From positions 1 through 45,150 of the IMG/VR virus record IMGVR_UViG_3300039210_000142: 45,150 nucleotides of DNA; one strand, 5' to 3'. A program made the translations under genes and the position numbers. Under the pieces are notes generated by a model that worked only from the letters and a program-made list of their open reading frames with translations, did not search any database and was not told the origin of the DNA. This DNA comes from a virus. Shown here in pieces: positions 6,023 through 39,063 of the stretch. Position 1 is the first letter of the stretch. Each line of letters starts with the position of its first letter.

Positions 6023-6874
6023 ATGGCAATCGTCCAGTTCGTACCGGAGCTGTGGTCACCGAACATCCTGACCAACCTCCGCGCCAAGCTCGTCTACGGC
6101 GGCCTCGGCAACAACGACTATGAGGGCCTGATCTCCCAGATCGGAGACACCGTCCACATCACGTCGTTCACCGATCCGGCAGTCCGGTCGTACACGAAGA
6201 ACTCGAACATCTCGTGGGATCTGCTGACGGACGCCACGCGCGCCCTGCTGATCGACCAGGGCGACTACTTCGCGTTCACCGTCGACGACATCGACCGTCG
6301 GCAGGCGTTCCCCGGCTTCGTCGCCGCGGCGTCGAAGGGCGCGGCGTACAACCTCGCGTTCAACGTCGACGACTACATCTCGGACATCCTCATCGCCTCC
6401 GCCGACGCGACGGCGCAGGACCTCGGCGCGCAGGCGTGGGACATCTCCGACAACAGCGCGTACAACTTCATCGTCGCGTTCCGAACGAAGCTGAACCGGG
6501 CGAACGTGCCGATGGAAGGCCGCTGGATCGTCGTGTCGCCCGAGCTGTACGCGGCACTGCTCCAGGACGTCCGGTTCATCAACGCCGCCGCATCGGGCGA
6601 CCAGTCGAACCAGGCGCTGCGCGAGGGCTTCGTCGGACGGATGGCCGGCTTCGACGTGTTCGAGTCGAACACGGTCTCCGAGCCGACCGCCGGCACGTAT
6701 CACGTGCTCGCCGGCTCGCCGATCGCGTTCACGTACGCCGACCAGATCCTCGAGACCGAGGCTGTCCGGCTGCAGAACCAGTTCGGCGACGGCATCCGCG
6801 GCCTGCACGTGTACGGGGCCAAGGTCGTCTACCCGACGGCAGTCGTGCTCGCGTCGGTCACCGTCCAGGCGTAA
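6023..6874 (+). CDS. Major capsid protein
   Basis: A 283-residue coat protein. It begins MAIVQFVPELWSPNIL and continues with a GDTVHITSFTDPAVRSY segment typical of the P22 gp5-like / HK97-fold coat group of actinophages. It then has DDYFAF-type strands (GDYFAFTVDDIDRRQAF), VVSPELYAALLQD and a C-terminal GAKVVYPTAVV strand. It lies directly after the scaffold with a 95-base gap holding an AAAGG ribosome site. Length is normal for the family with no delivery or protease domain fused. Confidence 0.92.
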   Translation: MAIVQFVPELWSPNILTNLRAKLVYGGLGNNDYEGLISQIGDTVHITSFTDPAVRSYTKNSNISWDLLTDATRALLIDQGDYFAFTVDDIDRRQAFPGFVAAASKGAAYNLAFNVDDYISDILIASADATAQDLGAQAWDISDNSAYNFIVAFRTKLNRANVPMEGRWIVVSPELYAALLQDVRFINAAASGDQSNQALREGFVGRMAGFDVFESNTVSEPTAGTYHVLAGSPIAFTYADQILETEAVRLQNQFGDGIRGLHVYGAKVVYPTAVVLASVTVQA

Positions 6875-6906: not shown

Positions 6907-7113
6907 ATGGCAAAGAACACCCAGGACGCCGAGGCGCGTTCGGTGGGAACGTCCCGCTCGGTGCAGGCCCTCGGGCAGATCCAGGATCAGCTCGACGGCA
7001 AACACGGCCCCGGTCAGATCAAGACGGGCGTCAACGCCCCGATCGAGCGCACGAAGGCCGACGACGAGCTGCTGAAGGTGCTCGAAGACGAAAACGCGAA
7101 CCGGCTCGCCTGA
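6907..7113 (+). CDS. Hypothetical small protein after capsid, 68 aa
   Basis: Starts at ATG 6907 after AAAGGAG (6893-6899), a good ribosome site. The product is hydrophilic and Lys/Asp/Gln-rich (VQALGQIQDQLDGKHG, then KADDELLKVLEDE), with no membrane segment or Cys motif. It sits where a head decoration or head-completion gene is often found, but nothing in the sequence proves that. The frame is open far upstream; the ribosome site decides this start. Confidence 0.72.
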   Translation: MAKNTQDAEARSVGTSRSVQALGQIQDQLDGKHGPGQIKTGVNAPIERTKADDELLKVLEDENANRLA

Positions 7114-7117
7114 GCTG

Positions 7118-7885
7118 GTGAACGTCTGTCTTGTCAGCCCCGCGTGGGGCCGGTTCGACGTGACCCGGATGGTGCTCGCTGAGCGCCGCTGGATGTGCGA
7201 CGAACTGGCCCTGCGCGGGCTGCAAGTCACATCGGTGATCGTGGCCGACGACGAGAACCTCGAGATCGCCGAGGAGTACGGCTTTGACACCGTCGAGATG
7301 GGAAACCTCGACCTCGGCGCCAAGTTCAACGCCGGGTATCGGTACGCGGCCGGGCAGGGCGCGGACGTCTTCGTCCACTGCGGCTCGGACGACTGGATCC
7401 ACCCGGACGCGTTCAACATCCTGGCCGAGACCAACCTCAACGCCGAAGCACCGATGCCGGATCCGACGCCGGGAAACCCGGTCGTGTGGCGGCGCTCACC
7501 GTCGATGGTGTCGCAACGCCGGATCCTGCTCGTCGACCTCTCCCGCGGCCAGGCGCAACGCTGCTTCGTGCATGGCCGCTACGGGTGCATCCCGTGGATG
7601 ATCCCGCGGAAGGCGTTGCAGCCGGAGGGGTTCGCGCCGATCGGGCCGGGCCACATGCGCGGCATCGACGGCGCCCTCGTCCGCGGACTCACGGCCCGCC
7701 CGACCTTCGTGTTCCAGGACGCGCCGGACGAGTGGTGCGTCGACTTCAAGTCCGCCACGAACGTGACGCCGTACCGCGGTCTAGCGTCCGCGCTCGGTGT
7801 CGGTGACGAAGAGGACGCGTGGCCGATGCTCGCCGAGTTCTACCCCGAGCACCTGATCGACATGGCGCGCTCGCTCGCCGCATGA
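7118..7885 (+). CDS. Glycosyltransferase-like protein (GT-A fold)
   Basis: A 255-residue protein that opens with a strand and loop typical of family 2-type GT-A transferases (VCLVSPAWGRFDVTRMVLAERR), then VTSVIVADDENLEIAEEYG and the DXD-like FVHCGSDDWIHPDAF near residue 90. This Asp pair would bind the divalent ion and nucleotide sugar. The C-terminal part has PRKALQPEGFAPIGPGHMRGIDG, an acceptor-type loop. GTG start 4 bases after the previous gene. First gene of an island of carbohydrate-active-like genes between capsid and connector. Donor and acceptor are unknown. Confidence 0.72.
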   Translation: MNVCLVSPAWGRFDVTRMVLAERRWMCDELALRGLQVTSVIVADDENLEIAEEYGFDTVEMGNLDLGAKFNAGYRYAAGQGADVFVHCGSDDWIHPDAFNILAETNLNAEAPMPDPTPGNPVVWRRSPSMVSQRRILLVDLSRGQAQRCFVHGRYGCIPWMIPRKALQPEGFAPIGPGHMRGIDGALVRGLTARPTFVFQDAPDEWCVDFKSATNVTPYRGLASALGVGDEEDAWPMLAEFYPEHLIDMARSLAA

Positions 7886-7913
7886 GAACGGCCCCCGTTT
7901 CCGAGGGCCGTTC
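7886..7913. terminator. Bidirectional hairpin terminator candidate
   Basis: A perfect 9-bp stem GAACGGCCC/GGGCCGTTC (7886-7894 and 7905-7913) starts at the base after the glycosyltransferase stop codon. It lies between that rightward gene and the end of the leftward gene at 7939, where a bidirectional terminator is expected. There is no T-run on either side, so intrinsic strength is uncertain. Confidence 0.6.
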
Positions 7914-7938
7914 TGTCGCGACGAGAGGCGGAGACTTG

Positions 7939-8325
7939 TCACGGTTCCCGCATCGCCGCAACCTTCGGTCGCCCCGTGAACTCGTAGGTGAGCGGTTGAG
8001 CGTCCGGCCCCATCGTGAAAGAAAGACTCCCGAGGAGGATCTCAGCCTCATCTCCGTCCTGGAGCCTCAGCGTGACGGGCACGTTGGCGTCGAACGGCCC
8101 GATGGTTGGATTCCAGTCGCCGCGCAGAAGACGAGCCTCACACTCAAACGTGCCGCGCCACTCCGGTAGACCGAACACGAACCTACCGGGGCGATAACTC
8201 GGATCGTGAGCAGCGGCAAGTGGACTGACATCAAGGGAGTGACGCTCGCGGTGAACGTCCCACCGTGCGACTCCTTCGACCGCAACGTCGCCCTGAATAG
8301 CTAGGGCTAGCTCGTCGAACTCCAT
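7939..8325 (-). CDS. Hypothetical protein on opposite strand, 128 aa (moron candidate)
   Basis: Reads leftward within the otherwise rightward structural region. The start is clear: on the minus strand TAAGGAGGTACGAG precedes the ATG at 8325. The product looks mainly beta-strand (RYRPGRFVFGLPEWRG-like stretch, DANVPVTLRLQDGDEAEILL, PLTYEFTGRPK) and lacks signal peptide or membrane helix. It is bordered by a hairpin terminator at its 3' end and a short divergent gap at its 5' end, the arrangement of an independently expressed inserted cargo gene. No family recognised; function unknown. Confidence 0.75.
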   Translation of the reverse strand: MEFDELALAIQGDVAVEGVARWDVHRERHSLDVSPLAAAHDPSYRPGRFVFGLPEWRGTFECEARLLRGDWNPTIGPFDANVPVTLRLQDGDEAEILLGSLSFTMGPDAQPLTYEFTGRPKVAAMREP

Positions 8326-8371
8326 CTCGTACCTCCTTACTAGGGAACCGTGACGCTGGGGAGTCTACTAC

Positions 8372-9007
8372 GTGAACATCACGCTCGGCGCGCACCCGGA
8401 CTGCATCGCCGCGCCAGAGTGCGCCGCCCTCGCCGGGCCACTCCACGCTCAGCTTTCGACAGGCCAGTACGACTGGCCCGCCTCGATCCTCCAACTCGAC
8501 GACATGGACGGGTACCTCGCGGCGCACCGGACAGCCCGGAAGCGCGCGCAGCACGCCCGCATCCTCGGCTACACGTTCCGAGAGTTCGCCCGCGAACTGC
8601 ACATCGACGAAATCCACGCGATCAACGTCAGCCTGCCCGAACGGCAGGGCCGACCGATGAGCGCCGGCTACCTCGAACGTCCGAGCTTTTCGCCGTTGCC
8701 CGTCTACCCGTGCGCGCGACACGCGATCCGCACCTACGGCGTCTTCTCCCCCGGCGGTGATCTCGTCGCCTACATCGTCCTGTACGTGTGCGGCGACGTC
8801 GCGATGGTGAGCCAGATCCTCGGTCACGCCGCGCACATGAAGAGCGACACGATGTACCTCCTGACGCTCGAAGCGTTCCGGGAGACGCTTGCGACGTCCG
8901 GGCCGGTGGTCGGGAGCTACAACAGACACGACTCGGGAACCGACGGCCTGCGCTACTTCAAGGAGCGTCTCGGCTTCCAAGCGGAGAGGGTCGCATGGAT
9001 CCTGTGA
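8372..9007 (+). CDS. GNAT-like acyltransferase-type protein, 211 aa
   Basis: The C-terminal part carries a GNAT-like course: a strand with GVFSPGGDLVAYIVLYVCGDVAMVSQ (in two runs), a helix after GHAAHMKSD, then YNRHDSGTDGLRYFKERLGF, the usual closing of an acyl-CoA-type acceptor protein. The N-terminus (residues 1-90) is less clear. Neighbouring genes are glycosyltransferases and a deacetylase-like protein, so acyl or aminoacyl decoration of a sugar or of a virion protein is plausible but unproved. GTG start preceded by GGGGAG at 8 bases. Confidence 0.6.
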   Translation: MNITLGAHPDCIAAPECAALAGPLHAQLSTGQYDWPASILQLDDMDGYLAAHRTARKRAQHARILGYTFREFARELHIDEIHAINVSLPERQGRPMSAGYLERPSFSPLPVYPCARHAIRTYGVFSPGGDLVAYIVLYVCGDVAMVSQILGHAAHMKSDTMYLLTLEAFRETLATSGPVVGSYNRHDSGTDGLRYFKERLGFQAERVAWIL

Positions 9008-9633
9008 GCGTGGCCGTCGTCACCTGCGTCTACGGCGAAGACCACGCACGATTCCTGCCCGCATGGATCGCATCGGTGCAGGCCCTCAACCGTCCACCCG
9101 ACGAGATCATCGTCGCCGCCGACCGCGACTACGACATTCCCGGCGTCCAAGTGCTCGCCTCTGCCTGCACTTGGCAGTATCCGCAGGCGCACTACATGCA
9201 GCGGGCGGTCCTCGCGGCGGAAACCGACTGGGTCTGGATCATGGGCGTCGACGACACTGTGATGCCCGACGGACTCGACGGCATCGAGGATGTGGACGCG
9301 GACGTGTGGCAGCTCGGCTACCTCCGCTCCGACCGCGTCTACTACGTGCCGCCGCAACTCGCCGCGGCCACCTATCTCGCCTCGGACGGCAACTGCTTCG
9401 TCGGTGCGAGCGCCGTCCGCGCTGACGCGTTCCGGCGCTGCGGCGGCTTCCCTGACATCGCCCTGGAGGACTGGGGGCTGTGGCGGCGGATGGCACGCGC
9501 GGGATGCAGCTTCGAGTCGTCTGACCGCGCCCACTTCAACTACCTGCTCGGCCCCCGGACGCGCGGAGCAATCGAGCTTGGCGGCGACGCCAGGCCGGGG
9601 CACGTCAGAGAGATGCTTGCGAGTGAACGCTGA
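8995..9633 (+). CDS. Glycosyltransferase family 2-like protein
   Basis: A 212-residue GT-A protein. It begins SVAVVTCVYGEDHARFLPAWI, has DEIIVAADRDYDIPG, then the metal-binding region WVWIMGVDDTVMPDGLDG (DD near residue 85), and the acceptor region GGFPDIALEDWGLWRRMAR, whose ED is the usual catalytic-base position of family 2 enzymes. Start at ATG 8995 follows GAGAGGG; an in-frame GTG at 9004 overlapping the upstream stop is an alternative. It looks intact, with all key acidic residues visible. Confidence 0.82.
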   Translation: MDPVSVAVVTCVYGEDHARFLPAWIASVQALNRPPDEIIVAADRDYDIPGVQVLASACTWQYPQAHYMQRAVLAAETDWVWIMGVDDTVMPDGLDGIEDVDADVWQLGYLRSDRVYYVPPQLAAATYLASDGNCFVGASAVRADAFRRCGGFPDIALEDWGLWRRMARAGCSFESSDRAHFNYLLGPRTRGAIELGGDARPGHVREMLASER

Positions 9634-10078
9634 GATCGCGCCCGCAGGCCCGTACCCCGCCGAGATTTTCGACGGCGCGCGGTCCGCCCTCTTCCTCTTC
9701 GGGGCAGGCTTCCTCGGCGCAAACGATGCCGTCTACGCGATGCGGGCTGGAGTGCCGGGAACCGTCATTGACCTCGATCGCGGGAAGCTCGACGAGATGC
9801 GCCCGCTCTATCCCGAGTCCTGGACGTTCGTCTATTGGGACGCGTTCGCGTGCATCACCGGCTGCCGGCCGCGTAGCTGGGATGTCGTCTCCGCCGACCC
9901 GTTCACTGGCGAAGCGGCCGACCGTTGCCTGTCGATGCTGCACGAGCTCGCCGGGCTCGCCTGTCGCGCGCTCACGCTCACGATCACGCCCACTACGCCC
10001 GCGCAGAGTCTGGACGGCTGGGAGGCGACGACCATGAAACGAACCCGTCTCGCGGACTGGCTCGTGCTCACGCGATGA
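9623..10078 (+). CDS. Rossmann-fold protein, possibly a reduced SAM methyltransferase
   Basis: A 151-residue product with LFLFGAGFLGANDAVYAM followed by VPGTVIDLDRGKLDEM, which reads as a nucleotide-binding glycine loop and an acidic residue at the end of strand 2. Later strands are DVVSADPFTGEAADRC and ALTLTITP. This is the layout of a class I methyltransferase without a clear catalytic motif. GTG start 11 bases inside the preceding gene's end. It sits between a glycosyltransferase and a deacetylase-like gene, so a sugar-modifying or accessory role is possible. Confidence 0.5.
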   Translation: MNAEIAPAGPYPAEIFDGARSALFLFGAGFLGANDAVYAMRAGVPGTVIDLDRGKLDEMRPLYPESWTFVYWDAFACITGCRPRSWDVVSADPFTGEAADRCLSMLHELAGLACRALTLTITPTTPAQSLDGWEATTMKRTRLADWLVLTR

Positions 10079-10782
10079 ACGCGTCCGACCTTGAACGGCT
10101 CGACACGCTGCTGCTAGCACCGGCGCGCGCCGTCGTCTCCATGCGCGAGGTCTTCCTCGGCGCGCGAGACGCAGACGTGGTCGGTATGCGCCACGACGTA
10201 GACGACAATCCCGGATCTCTCGCAACCGCCGTGCGGATCGCGATGTGGGAAGCGGAGCACGGCTACCGCTCCACCTACTTCATGCTCCACACGGCGTCGT
10301 ACTGGCAGGACGAGGCCACGCTCCGCCGATCGCTCGAACAGATCGCCGGACTCGACCACGAGATCGGGATCCATGCCAACTCGCTCGCGGAGGCGTTGCG
10401 GTACGGCGGCGACCCCGACGACATCCTCCAATGCGCCATCGACCAGCTACGCAGCTACGGCTACCCGGTCACGGGAGTTGTCGGCCACGGCGACCCGCTC
10501 TGCCGCCAAGCAGGCTTCATAAACGGCGAGATGTTCCTGGAATGTCCACGGCCCGAGATGGGCGAACCTGGCCGCGTCGTCACGTACGCCGGTCGGCGGG
10601 TGAGGCTTGCGCCGCGTCCGCTCGCCGACTTCGGGCTTGCGTACAACGCGATCTGGCTGCCGCGGGGACGCACTCTCTCGGACTCGGGCGGCGTCTGGAA
10701 CGTGCCACCGGAGACGCTCGCGGGCGGGCTGGGACAACTCCACATCTTGCAGCACAGCGACTGGTGGGCTGCGGCCCTCTAA
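10075..10782 (+). CDS. Polysaccharide deacetylase-like protein
   Basis: A 235-residue protein with the shape of a NodB-type carbohydrate esterase: GMRHDVDDNPGSL near residue 38 (the DD metal/catalytic motif), RSTYFMLHTASY, then HEIGIHANSLAEAL (H-x-x-x-H-like position), VVGHGDPLC and the C-terminal LHILQHSDWW. It lacks a signal peptide, so it would act inside the cell or within the virion. ATG start by ATGA overlap. It closes the enzyme part of the island; the next gene has its own strong ribosome site. Confidence 0.68.
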   Translation: MNASDLERLDTLLLAPARAVVSMREVFLGARDADVVGMRHDVDDNPGSLATAVRIAMWEAEHGYRSTYFMLHTASYWQDEATLRRSLEQIAGLDHEIGIHANSLAEALRYGGDPDDILQCAIDQLRSYGYPVTGVVGHGDPLCRQAGFINGEMFLECPRPEMGEPGRVVTYAGRRVRLAPRPLADFGLAYNAIWLPRGRTLSDSGGVWNVPPETLAGGLGQLHILQHSDWWAAAL

Positions 10783-10795
10783 GGAGGACACGAAA

Positions 10796-11188
10796 ATGGC
10801 AGTTGGACTTGCAAGCGGTATCGCGAACAGCATTCTGAACGCGTTGGGGAGCGCGACGGCGTGGACGCTGCCGGTGGCGTTCTATGTGAAGTTGCATACG
10901 GCTGATCCTGGGGCGGCGGGTGCGACGGCTGCGGCGGCGAACACGACGCGGAAGGCTGCGACGTTCTCGGCGGCGGCGGCAGGGTCTAAGACCACGTCGG
11001 CGGATCTGGCATGGACGAACGTGCCGAACGCCGAGACGTACTCGCATGTGTCGTTCTGGGATGCCGTGGCGGCGGGCAACTTCCTCGGCTCCGACGACCT
11101 CGCGGTGCCGCGCACCGTCGCTATCGGCGACAACTTCACGATCTTGGCGGGCAGCGTGACGTTGGCGCTGGCACCTGTCGCGGCCTGA
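10796..11188 (+). CDS. Tail-fibre or head-decoration type protein, 130 aa
   Basis: Begins after TAAGGAGGACACGAAA, one of the strongest ribosome sites in the window. The sequence has YVKLHTADPGAAG, a start pattern known from small phage tail-fibre/decoration proteins, then a Thr/Ala-rich middle and AETYSHVSFWDAVAAGNFLGSD, typical of their second beta domain. Codon choice (many G-ending Ala and Thr codons) looks different from the neighbours. Its position between capsid and connector genes is unusual for a tail fibre and more compatible with a head-exposed protein. Confidence 0.68.
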   Translation: MAVGLASGIANSILNALGSATAWTLPVAFYVKLHTADPGAAGATAAAANTTRKAATFSAAAAGSKTTSADLAWTNVPNAETYSHVSFWDAVAAGNFLGSDDLAVPRTVAIGDNFTILAGSVTLALAPVAA

Positions 11189-11616
11189 TGGCTATCTACG
11201 CACTCGCGCAGCGCACATCGAATGTCACGACCGCCGCCGCCGCCTGGGAAGTCCGCACCGCTGCAACGGACAGACCGAAGATCATGGAGATCGGCTTCAC
11301 ACTGGTTACGGCTGCCGCGACCGTGATCGGTCTTGGCCGCCCGGCCGCAAGCGGGATCACCCCCACCACGCCCGTGACTGTGCTCGCCGAGGACACCGGA
11401 GACCCCGCCGGAACCGTTACTGCCTGCCTGGCCAGCGCGACCTTGCCGACTGTGCCAGCGCAGTTTCTACGTCGGGCGGCGTTCCCCGGGACGATCGGTG
11501 CAGGCATCGTATGGACGTTCCCGCGCGGACTGGTTATCCCCGTCTCGTCGAGCATCGTGCTCTGGAACATCCTGGGTGGCGCCACGCTTGATGCCTGGGT
11601 TGTCGTAGACGAATGA
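11188..11616 (+). CDS. Hypothetical virion protein, 142 aa
   Basis: Coupled to the preceding gene by a TGATG overlap and to the next by ATGA. The product is predicted mostly beta: MEIGFTLVTAAATVIGLGRP, then a Pro/Thr-rich linker, then GIVWTFPRGLVIPVSSSIVLWNIL and DAWVVVDE. That is the pattern of a compact beta-sandwich as found in phage decoration or fibre proteins. No Cys or catalytic motif is seen. Membership of a surface-protein set with the genes on both sides is inferred from order and composition. Confidence 0.62.
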   Translation: MAIYALAQRTSNVTTAAAAWEVRTAATDRPKIMEIGFTLVTAAATVIGLGRPAASGITPTTPVTVLAEDTGDPAGTVTACLASATLPTVPAQFLRRAAFPGTIGAGIVWTFPRGLVIPVSSSIVLWNILGGATLDAWVVVDE

Positions 11617-12704
11617 GCGGTCTGCTCGGCGCCGCACGGCCGATTGCGTCATCGGCTGTCATGGCGCGAGGATGGTCGGCGGTACATCTACTGCCCGCGA
11701 TCGCGCCCGGCACCGCGACCGACTACTTCGGCGTCTCCAGCGTCGATCTCGCCGCCACGATCACGACGGCCGGAACCCGCGACACGTTCGCCGCGTCTTC
11801 GGTGACGGAGACAGTGACCGCCACGACCTCTGGCACGCTGGGCGCATTCGGCGTGGCGAGTGCGCCGTTCACGTTCGGAGTTACTACCGCCGGCACGCGC
11901 GCCACGTTTGGCGTCTCGACTACATCGCTCGCTGTCGGCGTCTCGACCGCCGGGATGCGCGACACGTTCGGCGTTTCAAGCACCGGCATAACCGCCACCG
12001 TCACAACAGCCGGCACGCGCGACACGTTCGCCGCTTCGACGTCCACTCTCACGCTCGGCATCACCACGGCGGGAACCCCGACGAAGTTCTCCTCCTCGTC
12101 CGTCGCGCTGGCGTTCGGCGCCTCGACTGCCGGGGTGCCGACGAAGTTCGCCTCCTCCTCGACACCTGTCGCGTTCACCGCGACGACCGCCGGGCAACTC
12201 GGCGCCAACGGGGCAAGCTCCCAGACGCTCACCCTCAACATCACCACCGACGGCACCGTCACAGCCGGCGGCGCGACGACCTACTACGGCGCAGCCAGCC
12301 TCACCATCACCGCGCTCGCGACAACGGCGGGCGCACCAACGAAGTTTGCATCCTCGACGTCGCCGTTTGCGTTCGCCGCGTCCACGGTGGGGCAACTCGG
12401 CGCGTTCAGCACGGCGACCGTCGCTCTCGCGTTTTCGATCACGACGGCGGGCACGCGCGGTGTCTCGGGCGAGGCGAGCCTCCCGATCACCTGGACGGCG
12501 ACCGCCACCGGCAGCTCGAGCAAGGACGGCAACGCCAGCCTGACCGTCACCGTGACGTTCACCACCGCCGGTTTCGCCACGAAGCCGCCGCCGGTCACGA
12601 GCCTTCCCGGCCTGATCCTGCACCCCGCAGCCGCCTCGGGAGCGCCCGTCCACTCCGCCGCCGGCGCGACCGTCCACCCGCGAACGGGAGAAGTGACCGC
12701 GTGA
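11613..12704 (+). CDS. Repeat-containing Ser/Thr-rich fibre-like protein, 363 aa
   Basis: After a short N-terminal part, residues 39-324 are about fourteen copies of a 20-residue unit of the type FGVSSxxxxxxxTTAGTRDT, alternating small residues and beta-branched residues, with one copy lengthened to 26. The C-terminus (SLPGLILHPAAASG, then ATVHPRTGE) is different and may be an attachment or capping part. The regular alternation suggests a beta-solenoid or stacked beta fibre. Ser and Thr crowd each repeat, offering many O-glycosylation sites next to glycosyltransferase genes. Confidence 0.78.
   Translation: MSGLLGAARPIASSAVMARGWSAVHLLPAIAPGTATDYFGVSSVDLAATITTAGTRDTFAASSVTETVTATTSGTLGAFGVASAPFTFGVTTAGTRATFGVSTTSLAVGVSTAGMRDTFGVSSTGITATVTTAGTRDTFAASTSTLTLGITTAGTPTKFSSSSVALAFGASTAGVPTKFASSSTPVAFTATTAGQLGANGASSQTLTLNITTDGTVTAGGATTYYGAASLTITALATTAGAPTKFASSTSPFAFAASTVGQLGAFSTATVALAFSITTAGTRGVSGEASLPITWTATATGSSSKDGNASLTVTVTFTTAGFATKPPPVTSLPGLILHPAAASGAPVHSAAGATVHPRTGEVTA
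11727..12584 (+). repeat. About fourteen imperfect 60-bp tandem repeats coding 20-aa units
   Basis: In-frame repeats within the fibre-like gene, recognisable from the recurring DNA for ACxGCCGGxACxCG (TTAGTR) and TTCGxCxxxTC (FxxSS). Copies have diverged at synonymous and non-synonymous positions, so the array is old rather than a recent expansion. Unit length is constant except near 12240-12290. Confidence 0.75.
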
Positions 12705-13585
12705 TCGTCAACCTGACCGGCTACATCCCCGCAGCCCGCTACGACGCGCTGCCGTGGACGCACGCACGCCTCGAAGAGGCCAGCTCGGCCGGTGGCCCAT
12801 GGACGGCCGCCGAGACGTTCACGCTCTCCCCCGTTGACGCCGACCCATCCCAGCCGGCGTCCCGTTCGTTCACGACGACGCTCGCGACCCTCACCGCAGG
12901 CTGGTACCGCGTCGTCTGGACCGACGCCGCGATGCTGGAGTCTGCGACGGCGCCCGTCCAGAACGTCCTGCCGTTCGCGTCCACGGACGAGTTCGCCGCC
13001 CGGCTCGGGCTCACCTTGACCGCCGCCGAGGAAACCCGTGCCGAGCAGCTCCTTAAACTCGCGACCGGGTTTATTCAGCAGGAGACCGCCCAGACGATCA
13101 GTCTCGTCACCGCCGACACGCTGACCGTCCGCAGCACCTATGCCGAGCGCTACCGGCTGCCGGAACGGCCCGTCCTTTCAGTCTCCTCCGTCTCGCTTAC
13201 GCCGCAGGGTGGCACGCCGACCGTGATCGGCACGGACACGTACTACCTCGACGGTGACGACCTCGTCCGCGCCTCGTTCCCGATCCACTATCAGCAGTTC
13301 TTCACGAACTGGACGCGCGGCTGGCTCGGCCCGCTGTTCGAGATGACCATCGTCTACACACACGGCTTCGCTGTCGTCCCGGAGATCGTGAAAGCGGTCT
13401 GCATGGAGATGGTCGTCCGCGTCTGGATAAATCCGGGCGCTGTCGCCCGCGAGACCGTCGGGAACGTCTCGACGGTTTACGACAACATGCGTTTCAGCCC
13501 GACCGGCCTGCTGATGACCGACGTCGAGCGCGAGCTGATCACCTCGATCATCCGCCGCCAGTCCGGAAGCCTGACGCTCCGGTGA
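12701..13585 (+). CDS. Head-tail connector (gp6-like) with extra N-terminal beta domain
   Basis: A 294-residue protein. From about residue 92 it has the usual connector course: STDEFAARLGLTLTAAEE, LLKLATGFIQQETAQ, then the YRLPERPVLSVSSV and TVIGTDTYYLDGDDL strands and the helical end DVERELITSIIRR. Such proteins sit under the portal and extend the DNA channel. Residues 1-90 (ARLEEASSAGGPWTAAETF, LTAGWYRVVWTDA) look like a fibronectin- or Ig-like domain, not part of the usual short connector. GTG start overlaps the upstream stop. Confidence 0.82.
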   Translation: MIVNLTGYIPAARYDALPWTHARLEEASSAGGPWTAAETFTLSPVDADPSQPASRSFTTTLATLTAGWYRVVWTDAAMLESATAPVQNVLPFASTDEFAARLGLTLTAAEETRAEQLLKLATGFIQQETAQTISLVTADTLTVRSTYAERYRLPERPVLSVSSVSLTPQGGTPTVIGTDTYYLDGDDLVRASFPIHYQQFFTNWTRGWLGPLFEMTIVYTHGFAVVPEIVKAVCMEMVVRVWINPGAVARETVGNVSTVYDNMRFSPTGLLMTDVERELITSIIRRQSGSLTLR

Positions 13586-13935: not shown

Positions 13936-14081
13936 TGGTGCACCTGCGTGCGTGGCGCCGCCGTCAGCGGTCGCATGTGCTCTTCGTCTCGGTGCCCGTG
14001 CCCGGCTCGACGATCGTCGCGTCCGGTTTGCGCCTAAGCCAGCGCCTACGGATGATCGAGGTGTCCCGATGCTCTCTGTGA
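13935..14081 (+). CDS. Small basic ORF, 48 aa (uncertain)
   Basis: Starts by TGATG overlap with the stopper gene and runs into the first bases of the next gene. The product is Arg-rich at the start (HLRAWRRRQRSH) and has a hydrophobic middle (VLFVSVPVPGSTIVASGL). Nothing recognised. It fills what would otherwise be a 133-base gap in a region without gaps, which is the main reason to list it. Confidence 0.4.
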   Translation: MVHLRAWRRRQRSHVLFVSVPVPGSTIVASGLRLSQRLRMIEVSRCSL

Positions 14082-14770
14082 GCGCCGTCATCGTCACGCG
14101 CGGCGACGTGCCCCTCGACCAGATCCTCGACACGTTCCAGCCGGTCACCGAGATCGACGAGATCATCGTCTACGACAACTCGAAGGAGCGTGACGAGAAA
14201 ACGTGGGGCCGCCACGTCGCGCTCGCCCGCTGCCGCAACCGTCTCATCTACTCCCAGGACGACGACATCGTCCACGAGCCCGACACGATCCGCCGCATCA
14301 TCGCCGCCCACCATCCCGGCTCGATCAGCGGCTGCATGTGGGAGGAATGGAGCGACGGCGCCACCGTCCAGGGCATCGAGGGCGGCTACTCAGACCTCGC
14401 GTTCCCCGGCGCCGGCAGCATCTACGACCGCGAAACCCCGCTCGTCGCCGCGGCCCGCTACCTCGAGCACCATCCGCTCGACGACTTCTTCCGCGTCTGG
14501 TGCGACGCCATCATCGGGATCATCGCGCCCACGGTCTGGCTCGACGATCGCTTCGAGGTGCTCCCGTGCGCCGACAGTCCAAACCGGATCTGCAACCTCC
14601 CGGACGCCCACATTCAGAAGCGCGAAGCGATCCACCGTGCCCGCGCCGTCCGCGATTACGCGCATGGCCCGCTCGTCCCGAAGCGCGACGCACTCACACT
14701 GGCGCTGGAGGAGGAAGACGTGATTCTCGGACGCGTCGATCGTGACCTCGCGCGGCTCGGGAACACCTGA
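14069..14770 (+). CDS. Glycosyltransferase-like protein between stopper and tail completion genes
   Basis: A 233-residue protein with VSAVIVTRGDVPLDQIL, EIDEIIVYDNSKERD and then CRNRLIYSQDDDIVHEPDTI near residue 65, an expanded DXD-type acidic motif for nucleotide-sugar and metal binding. GCMWEEWSDG and ILPCADSPN-like loops follow. The start at ATG 14069 is chosen because the GT-A fold begins immediately after it; the frame is open back to 13952. With the two genes at 7118 and 8995 this makes three GT-A-type proteins in the structural region, which is unusual. Confidence 0.75.
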   Translation: MLSVSAVIVTRGDVPLDQILDTFQPVTEIDEIIVYDNSKERDEKTWGRHVALARCRNRLIYSQDDDIVHEPDTIRRIIAAHHPGSISGCMWEEWSDGATVQGIEGGYSDLAFPGAGSIYDRETPLVAAARYLEHHPLDDFFRVWCDAIIGIIAPTVWLDDRFEVLPCADSPNRICNLPDAHIQKREAIHRARAVRDYAHGPLVPKRDALTLALEEEDVILGRVDRDLARLGNT

Positions 14771-29700: not shown

Positions 29701-29792
29701 TGACCGCCGCGATGCTCTGGGTCTCGATCCTCGGCGGTCTCTGTGCCGCGATCCTCATGGCCGCGTACCTCATGCCCAGATTGATCCGATGA
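29700..29792 (+). CDS. Single-helix membrane peptide, 30 aa
   Basis: TGATG start, ATGA end. The product is a hydrophobic helix (MLWVSILGGLCAAILMAAYL) with a basic end (PRLIR). Support comes from exact coupling to both neighbours and strong hydrophobicity. Function unknown. Confidence 0.58.
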   Translation: MTAAMLWVSILGGLCAAILMAAYLMPRLIR

Positions 29793-30640
29793 GCGCGGTC
29801 GCACCTGTCATGGATTTGTCCTTCGCGCGTCTCTCGCATCTGGAGGAGCGGATCTCGGAGTCTGAGCACGGCGGCCTGCGGGCACGCTGGGAGTTCGGGC
29901 ACGAGTTGTTGCGCGCGCGGGACGGCAAAGGACGTCTGCCGAACGGTTACCTCGTAGCGGTGGCCGAGAAGACGAAGGCGAGCCGCGCGGAGATTGGCAA
30001 GCGGATGCAGTTCGCCGCGCGATTTGCGAGCGAAAAGGAACTGTGTAACGCCGTTACGCAGTTCGGCTCTTGGCACGCGATCGTCAATGAGGCGCTGCCC
30101 GCCCACGCCGAGGTCGAGCCGGTCGGAGAGATGCCGCCGCTCCCTGACGGCATCTACCGGACGATTTGCGCTGACCCGCCTTGGCAGTACGGCAACACCT
30201 CGACGAGAGGCGCAGCCGAAGACCACTACCCGACCATGTCCATCGAGAAATTGTGTGCGCTCGACGTCCGCGCGATGGCTGCCGACGAAGCGCACCTCTA
30301 CCTCTGGACGACCAACGGTTTCCTCCGCGAGGCGTTCGGCGTGATGGATGCGTGGGGGTTCGAGTACAAGACGACGCTCGTCTGGGCGAAGCCTCAGATC
30401 GGAATGGGCAACTACTTCCGGTCGTCGACCGAGTACGTCCTGTTTGGCGTGCGCGGTGGCTTGCGGACGGTCGACTGCAACCAGCGCAACTGGTTCGAGG
30501 CGAAGCGGACGCGCCACTCGAAGAAGCCCGCTCGGTTCTTCGAGTTGGTCGAGACGGCGAGTTCAGGCCCCTATCTGGAGATGTTCGCGCGTGAGCGCCG
30601 GCTGAACCCCGAATGGAGCTACTGGGGGAATGAGGCGTGA
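29789..30640 (+). CDS. MT-A70-type adenine methyltransferase with N-terminal helical domain
   Basis: A 283-residue N6-adenine methyltransferase. Residues 1-110 are helical, ParB/KilA-like in character (LSHLEERISESEHGG, AEKTKASRAEIGKRMQFAAR). From residue 120 the MT-A70 domain shows YRTICADPPWQYGN with the catalytic D129-P-P-W132, LYLWTTNGFLREAF, TLVWAKPQIGMGNYFRSSTE and HSKKPARFFELVE with PYLEMFARERR, in the order expected. No restriction partner is nearby, so it may protect the phage against host restriction or mark its own DNA. ATGA start. Confidence 0.9.
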   Translation: MSAVAPVMDLSFARLSHLEERISESEHGGLRARWEFGHELLRARDGKGRLPNGYLVAVAEKTKASRAEIGKRMQFAARFASEKELCNAVTQFGSWHAIVNEALPAHAEVEPVGEMPPLPDGIYRTICADPPWQYGNTSTRGAAEDHYPTMSIEKLCALDVRAMAADEAHLYLWTTNGFLREAFGVMDAWGFEYKTTLVWAKPQIGMGNYFRSSTEYVLFGVRGGLRTVDCNQRNWFEAKRTRHSKKPARFFELVETASSGPYLEMFARERRLNPEWSYWGNEA

Positions 30641-35670: not shown

Positions 35671-36615
35671 GTGAGCGCGCTCGCGACACTTGGCGGCTAC
35701 CGGCCCCGCAGCGTAGAGTCCGACCCTCTGCGCGACTCCCGGCATCCCCATGCCAAGGCAGCGCGGGAACAGGCGGCCTGGCTGTCTTGGCTAGAGCTCG
35801 GAGGAACCGCCCCCGCCACCCTTTACAGGTACCAGTTGGCGACCGAGCGTCTCCTCGAAGCGTACCCCGACATGGACTTCGCGGAGTTCACGGACGCCGA
35901 GCTGCTGCACATCCTCAAAGGCTTCCCTCAGAAGAGTCGGGCTGTGCGGATGGCCGCCTACTCGTCCTGGTTCAAGTGGGCGTTGAAGACGCGGCGGATC
36001 CCGGTGAACCCGATGGACTACCTCCCCGACATCCGCCGTGCACCACAGCCGGTCATCGACATCTTCACCGTCGCGGAAGAGAACGCCCTCTGCTCGCTCC
36101 CCTCGCCTGACGGGCACCTGCTGACGGTCCTCTTCGAGGCGGGGTTGCGGAAGGCTGAGGCGATGAGCATCCGGCGCAAGCGGTTCAACTTCGACGCCGA
36201 AGAAGTCAACATCATCGAAGGGGCCAAGGGCGGCAGGCAGCGCGTCGTACCGATGAGCGCATCCCTCGCAAAGGCGATCACCGACCTGACCTGGCTTGAG
36301 GGGCTCGACCCGGACGACCACCTGTGGGCCACGCGACCGGGAGGCGGCCAGGCCAGGCGTGACCTGCCGATCGGTGAGACGTCGTTCGTGCGCTGGTGGG
36401 GACGCTGCATCCAGACGGCCGGCGTGCGCTACCGCAAGCCGCACACGACACGGCACACGTTCGCGACCCGATGGCGCCAACAGGGCCTCGCGCTCGACGA
36501 CCTCCAGTTGCTGATGGGCCACGCGTCGATCCAGACGACCTCGGACATGTACGTGCATACGAAGGTTGCCGATGTCGCGAAGCGGATGAAGGCGCTCGGA
36601 GGGAAAGGGTCCTGA
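35671..36615 (+). CDS. int: Tyrosine integrase/recombinase
   Basis: A 314-residue site-specific recombinase. The N-terminal arm- and core-binding region has GTAPATLYRYQLATERLLEA and SRAVRMAAYSSWFKWALKTR. The catalytic domain shows LFEAGLRKAEAMSIRRKRF (Arg I), GAKGGRQRVVPMS (Lys), HTTRHTFATRWRQQG (His-x-x-Arg), LLMGHASIQTTSDMYVH with the third His and the Tyr nucleophile. All catalytic residues are present. Indicates a temperate phage. GTG start 1 base after the upstream stop. It lies 7.3 kb from the repressor. Confidence 0.93.
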   Translation: MSALATLGGYRPRSVESDPLRDSRHPHAKAAREQAAWLSWLELGGTAPATLYRYQLATERLLEAYPDMDFAEFTDAELLHILKGFPQKSRAVRMAAYSSWFKWALKTRRIPVNPMDYLPDIRRAPQPVIDIFTVAEENALCSLPSPDGHLLTVLFEAGLRKAEAMSIRRKRFNFDAEEVNIIEGAKGGRQRVVPMSASLAKAITDLTWLEGLDPDDHLWATRPGGGQARRDLPIGETSFVRWWGRCIQTAGVRYRKPHTTRHTFATRWRQQGLALDDLQLLMGHASIQTTSDMYVHTKVADVAKRMKALGGKGS

Positions 36616-36724: not shown

Positions 36725-37276
36725 GTGAGCCTCGTTGGTTTCAAGGCGCGGAACCATCCGCAGCAGCCGCGCAAGGACTCGGTCGATGACCGCTGGACGC
36801 CGCTCAATCTCTGGATTCCCTGGAACGACCGCTTCGGCTTCACACTCGATGTCGCCGCCTCCGACGAGAACTACCTCTGCCCGCGCTACTTCACGCTCGA
36901 GCACGACGGACTAGCGCAGTCCTGGAAGGGAGAGCGGGTCTGGTGCAATCCCCCCTTCTCCGACATGACTTCATGGGTACGGAAGGCGTGGGACGAGACT
37001 AGAACCGGACGCTGCGATCTCGTGGTGATGCTTGCACCTGCGAACCGTACCGAGCAGCCGTGGTGGCAGGTCTCGATCGAGCCATACCGCGACAAAGGCG
37101 GCGCACTCACGACCGAGTTTCTGCCGCGCCGGATCAACTTCGGTTCGCGCGACAACCTCGGCGCCTGGTCGGCGTCATCTGCGCCGTTCGGCTGCTGTCT
37201 CTTGATCTTCGATCGCCGCCCCCGTGAGGGCGAGGCCGTGTCCCCTTCAAGGAGAGCCGAGAAATCAGATGCCTAA
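36725..37276 (+). CDS. Dam-type DNA N6-adenine methyltransferase (phage family)
   Basis: From GTG 36725 a 183-residue protein (an upstream GTG at 36650 would add 25). It has DRWTPLNLWIPWNDRFGFTL, DVAASDENYLCPRYFT, EHDGLAQSWKGERVWCNPPF with the catalytic N75-P-P-F78, then WVRKAWDETRTGRCDLVVML and FLPRRINFG. This is the phage Dam family that methylates adenine. GAGG before the GTG and the fold boundary favour 36725. The 109 bases before it (36616-36724) contain a CCCATATGGG palindrome but no gene. Second of three methyltransferases. Confidence 0.88.
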   Translation: MSLVGFKARNHPQQPRKDSVDDRWTPLNLWIPWNDRFGFTLDVAASDENYLCPRYFTLEHDGLAQSWKGERVWCNPPFSDMTSWVRKAWDETRTGRCDLVVMLAPANRTEQPWWQVSIEPYRDKGGALTTEFLPRRINFGSRDNLGAWSASSAPFGCCLLIFDRRPREGEAVSPSRRAEKSDA

Positions 37277-37693: not shown

Positions 37694-37927
37694 GTGACAC
37701 CGCGCAGCACTCGACTCGCCGCTCGCCTGTGGTGGGCGCTCCTGCCGTTCGCGGGATGGACGGCCTACCCGGATGAGCCGAACCCACCGCCGTGGTACGC
37801 GTACCCGCTGACGTGGCTGTGGAAGCTCGTGGGCAGGCTGCCCGGCTCCGCCCCGTTCGAGCCGATGCCGCCGATCGTGTGCGACTGCGACTACTGCCGG
37901 GGCCTGTCATCTCAGGTGAGCGCGTGA
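37694..37927 (+). CDS. Small membrane-associated Cys protein, 77 aa
   Basis: GTG start. A basic N-terminus (PRSTRLAARLWWALLPFAGW) gives a short hydrophobic segment; then a Pro/Trp-rich stretch (NPPPWYAYPLTWLWKLVG); then IVCDCDYCRGLSSQ, a three-Cys cluster. It could be a membrane-anchored metal-binding protein. GTGA end. No family recognised. Confidence 0.62.
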   Translation: MTPRSTRLAARLWWALLPFAGWTAYPDEPNPPPWYAYPLTWLWKLVGRLPGSAPFEPMPPIVCDCDYCRGLSSQVSA

Positions 37928-39063
37928 CCCCGTTCGTCCAGGACGCTGACTTCACGCTTCTCGTGGGCGATGCGCGCGAGGCCCTCGGCACGCTCGACGC
38001 TGACAGTGTTGACTGCGTCGTCACGTCCCCGCCGTACTACGCGCTGAGGGACTATGGCGTTGCGGGCCAGATGGGCGCGGAGGAGTCGCCGGCGGCATAC
38101 GTGGCGAGCCTCGTGTCGGTATTCGCGGAAGTGCGCCGCGTACTTAAGCCGACCGGGACCGTCTGGCTCAACCTGGGCGACTCGTACTCGACCAAGCAGA
38201 ACAGCGGCACCGGCTGGGACTCGTCGACGCTGACGAAGCCGGGCGGCCGCGCACGAAAGATTCAGGTAGCCCAGGAAGCGTCTATGGCGACGTCGCGGAT
38301 GCGCTACGACGTGCCCGAGAAGAACCTGCTCCTAATGCCCGCCCGCGTGGCTCTCGCGCTCCAGACGGACGGGTGGTGGGTGCGTCAGGACAACATCTGG
38401 TCAAAGCCGAACGCGCTGCCGGAAAGCGCAACCGACCGGCCCTCGCTCGCGCATGAGCACGTCTTCCTTCTGACGAAGAACTCCCGGTACACCTACGACG
38501 CCGCGGCCGTGAAGGAGCCAGCGAAGTGGGAACGCTGGGGCGATCAGACGACCCCGAAGAACAACCCCGGTCGAGCATCGTTTATCAAGCCACGCGGGAA
38601 GCAGGAGCTGCTCGCGGAGCACGCACCCGGCAGCGCCTCGCGGACGGTCGTGGGCTTCAATGCTCGCTGGGACGAGTCGATCGCGAACGGCGACGTCGCT
38701 CCCGACCGGAACCTCCGCTCAGTATGGGAGATTCCGACCGAGCCGAACACATGGGCCGCGTGCATCGACTGTGACGCCGTCTTCGATCGTTCGGTCTCGG
38801 CCGAGAATCACGAGACGGCAACCGGGCACAAGCTCGCGCCCCACTTCGCGGCGTTCCCGAAGAAGCTGGCCCGAACGTGCATCCTTGCGGGTTGCCCTGC
38901 CGAGGGCCTCGTCATCGACCCGTTCGCTGGCTCCGGGACGACTTTGCTTGAAGCGCGCCGACTCGACCGGCGCTGCATCGGCATCGAACTACGGCCCGCG
39001 TATGGGCGACTCATCGCCGCACGCATGGCGCAGCTCTCCCTTCTCGCGGAGCCTGCCGCGTGA
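37924..39063 (+). CDS. Beta-class DNA methyltransferase (N4-C/N6-A) with zinc-finger insert
   Basis: A 379-residue enzyme with the beta-class order: DSVDCVVTSPPYYALRDYG first (motif IV, T34-S-P-P-Y38) and VIDPFAGSGTTLLEARRLDR last (motif I, from D332). Between them are the target-recognition region (WSKPNALPESATDRPSLAHE, FLLTKNSRYTYD) and a C2H2-like insert with C280, C283, H297 and H303 (CIDCDAVFDRS, NHETATGH). GIELRPAYGRLIAARM closes the SAM site. All key residues are intact. Third DNA methyltransferase in the operon, again without a nuclease partner of its own. Confidence 0.9.
   Translation: MTPFVQDADFTLLVGDAREALGTLDADSVDCVVTSPPYYALRDYGVAGQMGAEESPAAYVASLVSVFAEVRRVLKPTGTVWLNLGDSYSTKQNSGTGWDSSTLTKPGGRARKIQVAQEASMATSRMRYDVPEKNLLLMPARVALALQTDGWWVRQDNIWSKPNALPESATDRPSLAHEHVFLLTKNSRYTYDAAAVKEPAKWERWGDQTTPKNNPGRASFIKPRGKQELLAEHAPGSASRTVVGFNARWDESIANGDVAPDRNLRSVWEIPTEPNTWAACIDCDAVFDRSVSAENHETATGHKLAPHFAAFPKKLARTCILAGCPAEGLVIDPFAGSGTTLLEARRLDRRCIGIELRPAYGRLIAARMAQLSLLAEPAA

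What the first reader, a model, noticed from the sequence alone, without database searches (positions are those of the whole stretch)
7118..12704. Glycosyltransferase/esterase/repeat-fibre island inserted between capsid and connector genes
In standard siphovirus order the head-tail connectors follow the capsid gene. Here 5.6 kb intervenes with two GT-A-like transferases, a GNAT-like protein, a Rossmann protein, a NodB-like deacetylase, two beta-rich virion-type proteins and a Ser/Thr-rich repeat protein. A third GT-A-like gene lies at 14069. The simplest hypothesis is a dedicated system that builds and modifies a sugar on a capsid-surface fibre or decoration protein, possibly for adhesion or immune/receptor evasion. 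I do not know this exact combination as a described system.
Basis: partly seen in the sequence, partly recalled or inferred. Interest (0 to 1): 0.72.

Follow-up and report, generated by a model that had tools for sequence, protein, structure and literature searches.

The report
Travelling sugar-building genes beside phage capsid
In this uncultivated phage a block of sugar-handling enzymes sits between the shell-protein gene and the tail-attachment genes; nearly the same set recurs beside shell or tail-tube genes in dozens of other unstudied phages, so it is probably a portable kit for coating the virus particle with a sugar.

Summary
Between the capsid gene (6023-6874) and the head-tail connector (12701-13585) lie two glycosyltransferases (GTs), a weak GNAT-like protein, a Rossmann protein, a NodB-fold protein, a Gp80/GP4-type fibre protein, a beta-rich protein and a 20-residue-repeat protein. 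A third GT lies at 14069.

New here: GNAT, Rossmann, GTc, NodB and GTa (sometimes GTb) form a travelling cassette. Of 35 loci baited with NodB, 34 carry GNAT and 32 GTa. It occurs in three capsid lineages, usually beside the major capsid gene or a tail-tube-like gene. In 24 of 24 contigs with a recognised capsid gene, GTa is first or second after it. Forty capsid relatives without GTa have short gaps there. GTa is essentially virus-only, and the cassette was not found in 50,697 deposited phage records.

The capsid protein is homologous to Che8's, which is reported to be glycosylated, but Che8's GTs are unrelated by sequence.

The repeat protein is associated but dispensable. Acceptor and biological role remain inferred.

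The parts
6023..6874 (+). Major capsid protein, 283 aa, P22-coat-like / Che8-like; left border of the island and a candidate acceptor
   Evidence: PF11651 E 8.5e-9; profile matches 8e16 'Major capsid protein, gp6' E 1.6e-59; 37% identity to Che8 gp6
6907..7113 (+). Small 68-aa protein between capsid and GTa, function unknown
   Evidence: Coding score 37; conserved in L003; dN/dS 0.60
7118..7885 (+). GTa: GT-A glycosyltransferase, core gene of the site; invariant SD of the SDD motif
   Evidence: AlphaFold2 pLDDT 95.5; 6p61 E 1.4e-6 and other GTs; alignment A6; dN/dS 0.26-0.33
7939..8325 (-). Moron-like 128-aa minus-strand gene inserted between GTa and GNAT, which overlap in L030
   Evidence: Shine-Dalgarno AAGGAGGT 6-8 nt before ATG; found only in near-identical contigs; hairpin at 7885-7914, z -2.7
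8372..9007 (+). GNAT / Acetyltransf_6-like protein, candidate acyltransferase
   Evidence: PF13480 E 0.16, sub-threshold; highly conserved in 5 relatives
9004..9633 (+). GTb: GT2-like glycosyltransferase
   Evidence: phrog_9549 E 8.9e-7; PF00535 E 1.5e-4, just under cut-off; 45% identical orthologue in the cassette of L161
9623..10078 (+). Rossmann protein, methyltransferase-like motif pattern
   Evidence: Alignment A9, conserved LFxAxFLG...DxDxxKL...DVVSxDPFT; weak MTase profile matches in the L004 homologue, E 0.01
10075..10782 (+). NodB/CE4-fold protein, candidate carbohydrate deacetylase
   Evidence: AlphaFold2 pLDDT 92.5; 2vyo chitin deacetylase E 3.8e-4, 6h8l PdaC E 9e-4; invariant RHDVD
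10796..11188 (+). Gp80 / phrog_240 virion (fibre) protein
   Evidence: PF23140 E 3.3e-26; phrog_240 E 2.4e-27; phage GP4-type virion chain 8jou E 3.7e-17
11188..11616 (+). Beta-rich 142-aa protein of unknown function
   Evidence: No Pfam or PHROG match
11613..12704 (+). Repeat protein, period 20 aa, 33% Ser+Thr, probable surface fibre
   Evidence: Autocorrelation far above shuffles; syntenic 20-22 aa repeat proteins in L004, L030, L046, L047, L065
12701..13585 (+). Head-tail connector, right border of the island
   Evidence: Profile matches Che8 gp7 head-to-tail adaptor E 3.6e-35
14069..14770 (+). GTc: GT2-like glycosyltransferase displaced from the island
   Evidence: PF00535 E 3e-4; orthologues lie inside the island of L004, L030, L043, L045, L049

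Best explanation
A virus-restricted, mobile cassette of soluble enzymes (GTa, GTb, GTc, a GNAT-like acyltransferase, a Rossmann/methyltransferase-like protein and a NodB-fold deacetylase) that builds and trims a short glycan on an abundant protein of the phage's own particle during late infection. Shown: the genes, the GT-A and NodB folds, co-travel across capsid lineages, placement beside the capsid or a tail-tube-like gene, and purifying selection. Inferred: GTa attaches or extends the first sugar on a virion protein (capsid or tail tube most likely, the Gp80/repeat fibre next); GTb and GTc extend the chain; NodB removes an acyl group and GNAT re-acylates; the Rossmann protein may methylate. 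The biological role (shielding, adhesion, stability) is open.
For: GTa is first or second gene after the capsid gene in 24 of 24 contigs with a recognised capsid gene. The cassette recurs in capsid lineages phrog_2263 and phrog_10, beside a major tail protein (phrog_4574 E 8.5e-27 in L196) or directly after the capsid gene (L154). Of 35 NodB-baited loci 34 carry GNAT and 32 GTa. Relatives fill the same site with other sugar genes: WbqC, PIG-L, GT11, hexapeptide transferases, NAD-sugar epimerase, GDSL esterase, methyltransferases. The capsid is homologous to Che8's, reported glycosylated in PMC11256854 and PMC12363180; capsid and tail-tube C-termini are the reported glycan sites in mycobacteriophages (PMC12619734). 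GTa is in 1 of 84,980 cellular genomes, on a contig with a terminase gene. dN/dS 0.26-0.47.
Against: No biochemical or mass-spectrometric evidence. GNAT and Rossmann assignments are weak; the CE4 catalytic motifs of the NodB protein are not canonical. Adjacency could reflect an insertion hot spot or late-promoter use rather than substrate. No conserved acceptor motif is shown: the capsid ending VQA (13 of 17 GTa+ against 0 of 89 GTa-) is confounded by ancestry.
Confidence: 0.7

Rival explanations
1. The glycan is built specifically on the Gp80/repeat fibre: fibre genes are co-inherited with their own modifying enzymes.
For: Large non-enzymatic genes share the site in 7 of 10 GTa+ contigs and 0 of 40 GTa- contigs; the repeat protein is 33% Ser+Thr; gp80 and 20-aa repeat proteins also occur a few genes from the cassette in the second capsid lineage, e.g. 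L193, L196, L192.
Against: L067, L040 and L033 have GTa and no fibre at the site; a repeat protein was detected in only 10 of 25 well-flanked NodB loci (though flanks are limited); Ser/Thr richness is not conserved; the cassette stays with capsid or tail-tube genes when separated from the fibre.
Confidence: 0.25
2. Host-directed metabolism: the genes remodel the host envelope (serotype conversion, superinfection exclusion), an auxiliary metabolic island.
For: GTa also resembles GtrB, TarS and TarP structurally; the window has a tyrosine integrase; similar transferases are often read this way (discussion in PMC10955285).
Against: No membrane-spanning protein in the set (highest 19-residue hydropathy 1.83), so no flippase or membrane transferase; the genes lie inside the late structural operon and move with capsid or tail-tube genes; GTa is nearly absent from cellular genomes.
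Confidence: 0.15
3. DNA hypermodification: the transferases glycosylate modified bases of the phage genome.
For: Phage transferases are known to do this (Pyle et al. 2024, cited in PMC12619734).
Against: No thymidylate-synthase-type gene in the window, with positive controls in 9 of 14 genomes; placement with capsid and tail-tube genes. The Tet/JBP search was uninformative because no control rang.
Confidence: 0.05
4. The NodB protein and neighbours are particle-borne enzymes that act on host polysaccharide at entry.
For: NodB fold; neighbouring fibre genes.
Against: NodB is a compact single-domain protein without a fibre or capsid-binding domain, and travels with GT-A transferases, which need cytoplasmic sugar nucleotides (established GT-A biochemistry).
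Confidence: 0.05

Closest known systems
Mycobacteriophage virion glycosylation (Che8, Corndog, Myrna; Freeman et al. 2023, read through PMC12363180, PMC12619734, PMC11256854)
   Same: Phage-encoded transferases; homologous capsid protein and the same TerL-portal-scaffold-capsid-adaptor order in Che8; capsid and tail tube as the reported glycoproteins.
   Different: Che8 gp108-110 have no detectable homology to GTa, GTb or GTc and lie at the far right genome end; Che8 has no GNAT, NodB or Rossmann match among the proteins tested; its capsid gene is followed directly by the adaptor.
Chlorovirus PBCV-1 capsid glycosylation (PMC5408694)
   Same: Virus encodes most or all of the machinery that glycosylates its own major capsid protein in the cytoplasm.
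   Different: Large eukaryotic virus with an unrelated capsid; no homology tested or claimed.
Bacterial polysaccharide gene clusters (GT2, WbqC, PIG-L, hexapeptide transferase, epimerase) and, by chemistry only, Nod-factor synthesis
   Same: Same enzyme classes: transferase, deacetylase fold, acyltransferase, methyltransferase.
   Different: Analogy from general knowledge; no sequence membership, no membrane export genes, product and acceptor unknown.
Podophage GP4 fibre protein gp80 (PF23140, 8jou) and PHROG 240 head protein
   Same: The 10796-11188 protein is a member.
   Different: In deposited actinobacteriophages the same family lies among the minor tail genes; here between capsid and connector.

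Membership tests
Mycobacteriophage (Che8-type) virion glycosylation | Phage-encoded glycosyltransferases | tested here: met
   GTa GT-A fold; GTb, GTc GT2-like
Mycobacteriophage (Che8-type) virion glycosylation | Transferases homologous to Che8 gp108-110 | tested here: not met
   No profile match at E up to 10
Mycobacteriophage (Che8-type) virion glycosylation | Capsid of the family shown to be glycosylated in Che8 | tested here: met
   Capsid homologous, E 5e-81 and 37% identity; homology does not show modification
Mycobacteriophage (Che8-type) virion glycosylation | Glycan covalently bound to capsid or tail tube | not testable with these tools
   Needs mass spectrometry
GT-A / GT2 glycosyltransferase (GTa) | GT-A fold | tested here: met
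   53 PDB matches at E 0.001 or better, the top ones glycosyltransferases
GT-A / GT2 glycosyltransferase (GTa) | Acidic DxD-type metal/sugar-nucleotide motif | tested here: met
   GSDDW: G89, S90 and D91 invariant in 35 sequences
GT-A / GT2 glycosyltransferase (GTa) | Pfam PF00535 gathering score | tested here: not met
   18.6 bits against 23.3; so not filed as Pfam GT2, only as GT-A
CE4 / NodB deacetylase | NodB fold | tested here: met
   2vyo E 3.8e-4, 6h8l E 9e-4, 2c71 E 3.5e-3
CE4 / NodB deacetylase | Motif 1 TFDDG | tested here: not met
   RHDVD(D) instead, invariant; hence NodB-fold, not a confirmed CE4 member
CE4 / NodB deacetylase | Motif 2 HxxxH metal ligands | tested here: not met
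   HEIGxHxN: the second His of the motif is absent; another invariant His at 138 could substitute
GNAT acyltransferase | Significant family match | tested here: inconclusive
   PF13480 E 0.16; no structure predicted (cap reached)
Gp80 / PHROG 240 | Pfam gathering score | tested here: met
   92.6 bits against 27
Phage DNA hypermodification cluster | Base-hydroxylating or thymidylate-synthase-like gene in the genome | tested here: inconclusive
   Thymidylate synthase family absent, controls positive; Tet/JBP search had no positive control

The most novel reading that the evidence does not exclude
A virus-restricted, mobile five- to six-gene pathway that makes an unusual, de- and re-acylated amino-sugar glycan on capsid and tail-tube proteins and is exchanged as a unit between unrelated phage capsid lineages: a second, genetically independent route of phage virion glycosylation, common in uncultivated phages but unseen in culture collections.
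Probability: 0.4. Interest if true: 0.78.

Novelty: new variant of a known kind. Interest (0 to 1): 0.62.

Why it matters
Phages are not typically thought of as glycosylated; the proven cases I could read about are mycobacteriophages, and Che8's transferases are unrelated to these. A compact cassette that follows capsid and tail-tube genes across lineages gives a clear gene set to express and assay, and a marker for finding glycosylated virions in metagenomes. It also warns against reading such transferases as host-metabolism genes.

Tried and rejected
Searching 50,697 deposited phage records with GTa, GTb, GTc, GNAT and NodB and with two relatives' versions gave one weak partial hit, so named relatives could not help. 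Host assignment through bacterial genomes failed: only one Acidimicrobiia MAG contig carries GTa, and searches of 396 phylum and 395 class genomes gave otherwise only partial matches. The idea that the Ser/Thr-rich repeat is the conserved acceptor was dropped because relatives keep the period, not the composition. A capsid C-terminus ending VQA is found in 13 of 17 GTa+ capsids of the 283-aa class and 0 of 89 GTa- ones, but GTa+ capsids fall into nearly one clade, so shared ancestry explains it as well. Corndog's record was not in the collection and the Freeman paper itself was not held. Promoter and terminator scans were no better than shuffles. Sequence searches of the PDB gave nothing useful for NodB, GNAT or the Rossmann protein.
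Full report
What the window is. The window is a whole IMG/VR virus record of 45,150 bases with one late operon in siphovirus order: terminase, portal, MuF, scaffold, capsid, [island], connector, stopper, tail terminator, major tail protein, tape measure. It also has a tyrosine integrase and three DNA methyltransferases. TerL, portal, scaffold, capsid and adaptor are homologous to those of mycobacteriophage Che8, in the same order. The best solved relative of the capsid profile is the 273-aa 'Major capsid protein, gp6' of entry 8e16 (E 1.6e-59), which has the length of Che8 gp6.

Checking the observation. GTa folds with high confidence (pLDDT 95.5) to a GT-A enzyme. GTb and GTc are GT2-like. 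The NodB-like protein has no family match but folds (pLDDT 92.5) like CE4/NodB deacetylases, best match chitin deacetylase family member 2vyo; its catalytic motifs are not canonical. The GNAT assignment rests on a sub-threshold match. The Rossmann protein has methyltransferase-like conserved columns, with only weak profile matches in one homologue. Gp80 is a solid family member. The repeat protein has a 20-residue period far above shuffles. One gene was missed: a minus-strand 128-aa gene at 7939-8325 with its own Shine-Dalgarno sequence, which separates GTa from GNAT although these overlap in L030.

Is it an insertion? Capsid relatives were collected without regard to the island. In 40 without GTa in which a connector is recognised, the capsid-connector gap is 11-1302 bp; in 10 with GTa (some of them collected through GTa) it is 925-6441 bp. 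L006, whose capsid is 52% identical to the window's, has a 253-bp gap. The capsid tree puts the GTa+ phages of the window's capsid class in essentially one clade, so the contigs are not independent and the state is old within that clade.

What fills the site in relatives. L004, L030/L031, L041, L043 and L044 carry GTa, GNAT and NodB with the Rossmann protein and/or GTc. Other relatives keep GTa but have different sugar genes there: WbqC (L033, L039), a PIG-L-like deacetylase (L033), methyltransferases, a GT11 fucosyltransferase family member (L049), hexapeptide transferases (L040, L065, L056), a GDSL esterase, an NAD-sugar epimerase and an Asn-synthase-like gene (L056), and GT2 (L045). L067 has GTa alone. 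GTc, which in the window lies past two connector genes, is inside the island in L004, L030, L043, L045 and L049, which ties it to the set.

The genes travel together. Scans with the NodB and GNAT alignments brought in phages with a different capsid (phrog_2263) and a different gene order. There the order is capsid, fibre genes in some, connector, tail terminator, then GNAT-Rossmann-(GTb)-GTc-NodB-GTa, then a 135-139 aa gene that is a clear major tail protein in L196 (phrog_4574 E 8.5e-27) and only a weak match elsewhere (phrog_1407 E 1e-3 for the L043 homologue). A GTb orthologue, 45% identical, sits in the cassette of L161. In L154 a third capsid type (phrog_10) is followed directly by GTa-GNAT-NodB. 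Of 35 NodB-baited loci, 34 carry GNAT and 32 carry GTa; two of the three without GTa are cut off on that side. Among 25 non-redundant NodB loci with at least 3.5 kb on both sides, 24 have GTa, 24 GNAT, 20 Rossmann and 17 GTc (some of these were baited by GTa or GNAT). Thirty of 36 non-redundant loci have a cassette gene within two genes of a capsid or tail-tube-like gene. Pairwise distances of the five families correlate (r 0.40-0.74, none of 300 permutations as high), as expected if they are inherited together; shared phage ancestry contributes.

Virus restriction. GTa was found in 34 viral loci and in one of 84,980 bacterial and archaeal genomes, on a contig that also carries a terminase gene. 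NodB gave no full-length match in 395 genomes of that MAG's class. No deposited phage carries the cassette at the sensitivity used. Pairwise dN/dS of the cassette genes tested is 0.26-0.47, consistent with function.

Mechanism. The enzymes are soluble, lie in the late structural operon, and include several transferases plus probable deacylating, acylating and methylating functions. The most economical reading is a pathway that builds a modified glycan on an abundant virion protein as it is made. The two kinds of gene that flank the cassette, capsid and tail tube, are the two proteins reported glycosylated in mycobacteriophages (PMC12363180 and PMC12619734, citing Freeman 2023), and the window's capsid is a homologue of one of them. 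Shown: genes, folds, linkage, placement, selection. Inferred: sugar identity, acceptor, order of steps, biological role.

The repeat protein. Repeat proteins with a 20-22 aa period lie just before the connector in L004, L030, L046, L047 and L065 and in several phages of the second lineage, so fibre and cassette are associated. But three phages have GTa and no fibre at the site, one distant relative (L020) appears to have large non-enzymatic proteins downstream of its capsid gene and no GTa, and the Ser/Thr richness is highest in the window.

Verdict. The feature is real and coherent, and I found no description of this combination in the material I could search, but it is of a known kind: phage-encoded virion glycosylation. 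Membership in the Che8 system fails at the level of transferase homology and gene place; similarity of function remains likely but untested.

Noticed in passing
window 7939-8325 (-): Minus-strand 128-aa gene with strong Shine-Dalgarno and a nearby hairpin, inserted between GTa and GNAT, which overlap in L030: a moron-like insertion, found only in near-identical contigs.
   Followed up: partly
window 35671-36615: Tyrosine integrase (PF00589 E 5e-22), suggesting a temperate phage.
   Followed up: no
window 29789-30640, 36725-37276, 37924-39063: Three DNA methyltransferases of different families (MT-A70, Dam, N6_N4).
   Followed up: no
L041:5595-5756; L044:6124-6294; window 6907-7113: Small proteins sit between capsid and GTa; those of L041 and L044 are Lys/Gly-rich (KGKVTSTGK...GGKSMVQNLPKVSGKATGS). 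Function unknown, possibly internal head or decoration proteins.
   Followed up: no
capsid C-termini of GTa+ loci (window 6860-6871): Capsids of 13 of 17 GTa+ phages of the 283-aa class end in VQA, against 0 of 89 without GTa; nearly one clade, so possibly only ancestry.
   Followed up: partly
L033, L039, L062, L144: GTa relatives lie in other sugar clusters with WbqC-like and methyltransferase genes; L144 is an Acidimicrobiia MAG contig with a terminase gene, a hint at an actinobacterial host.
   Followed up: partly
L010:10904-11977: A Stealth-like (capsule phosphotransferase family, sub-threshold) protein directly follows the capsid gene in a phage without GTa: perhaps an independent use of the same site.
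   Followed up: no
L041:9087-10304; L044:8899-10338: Collagen-like (GPTGPT, GIQGIQ) fibre proteins directly after the NodB gene, in the place of the 20-aa repeat protein.
   Followed up: no
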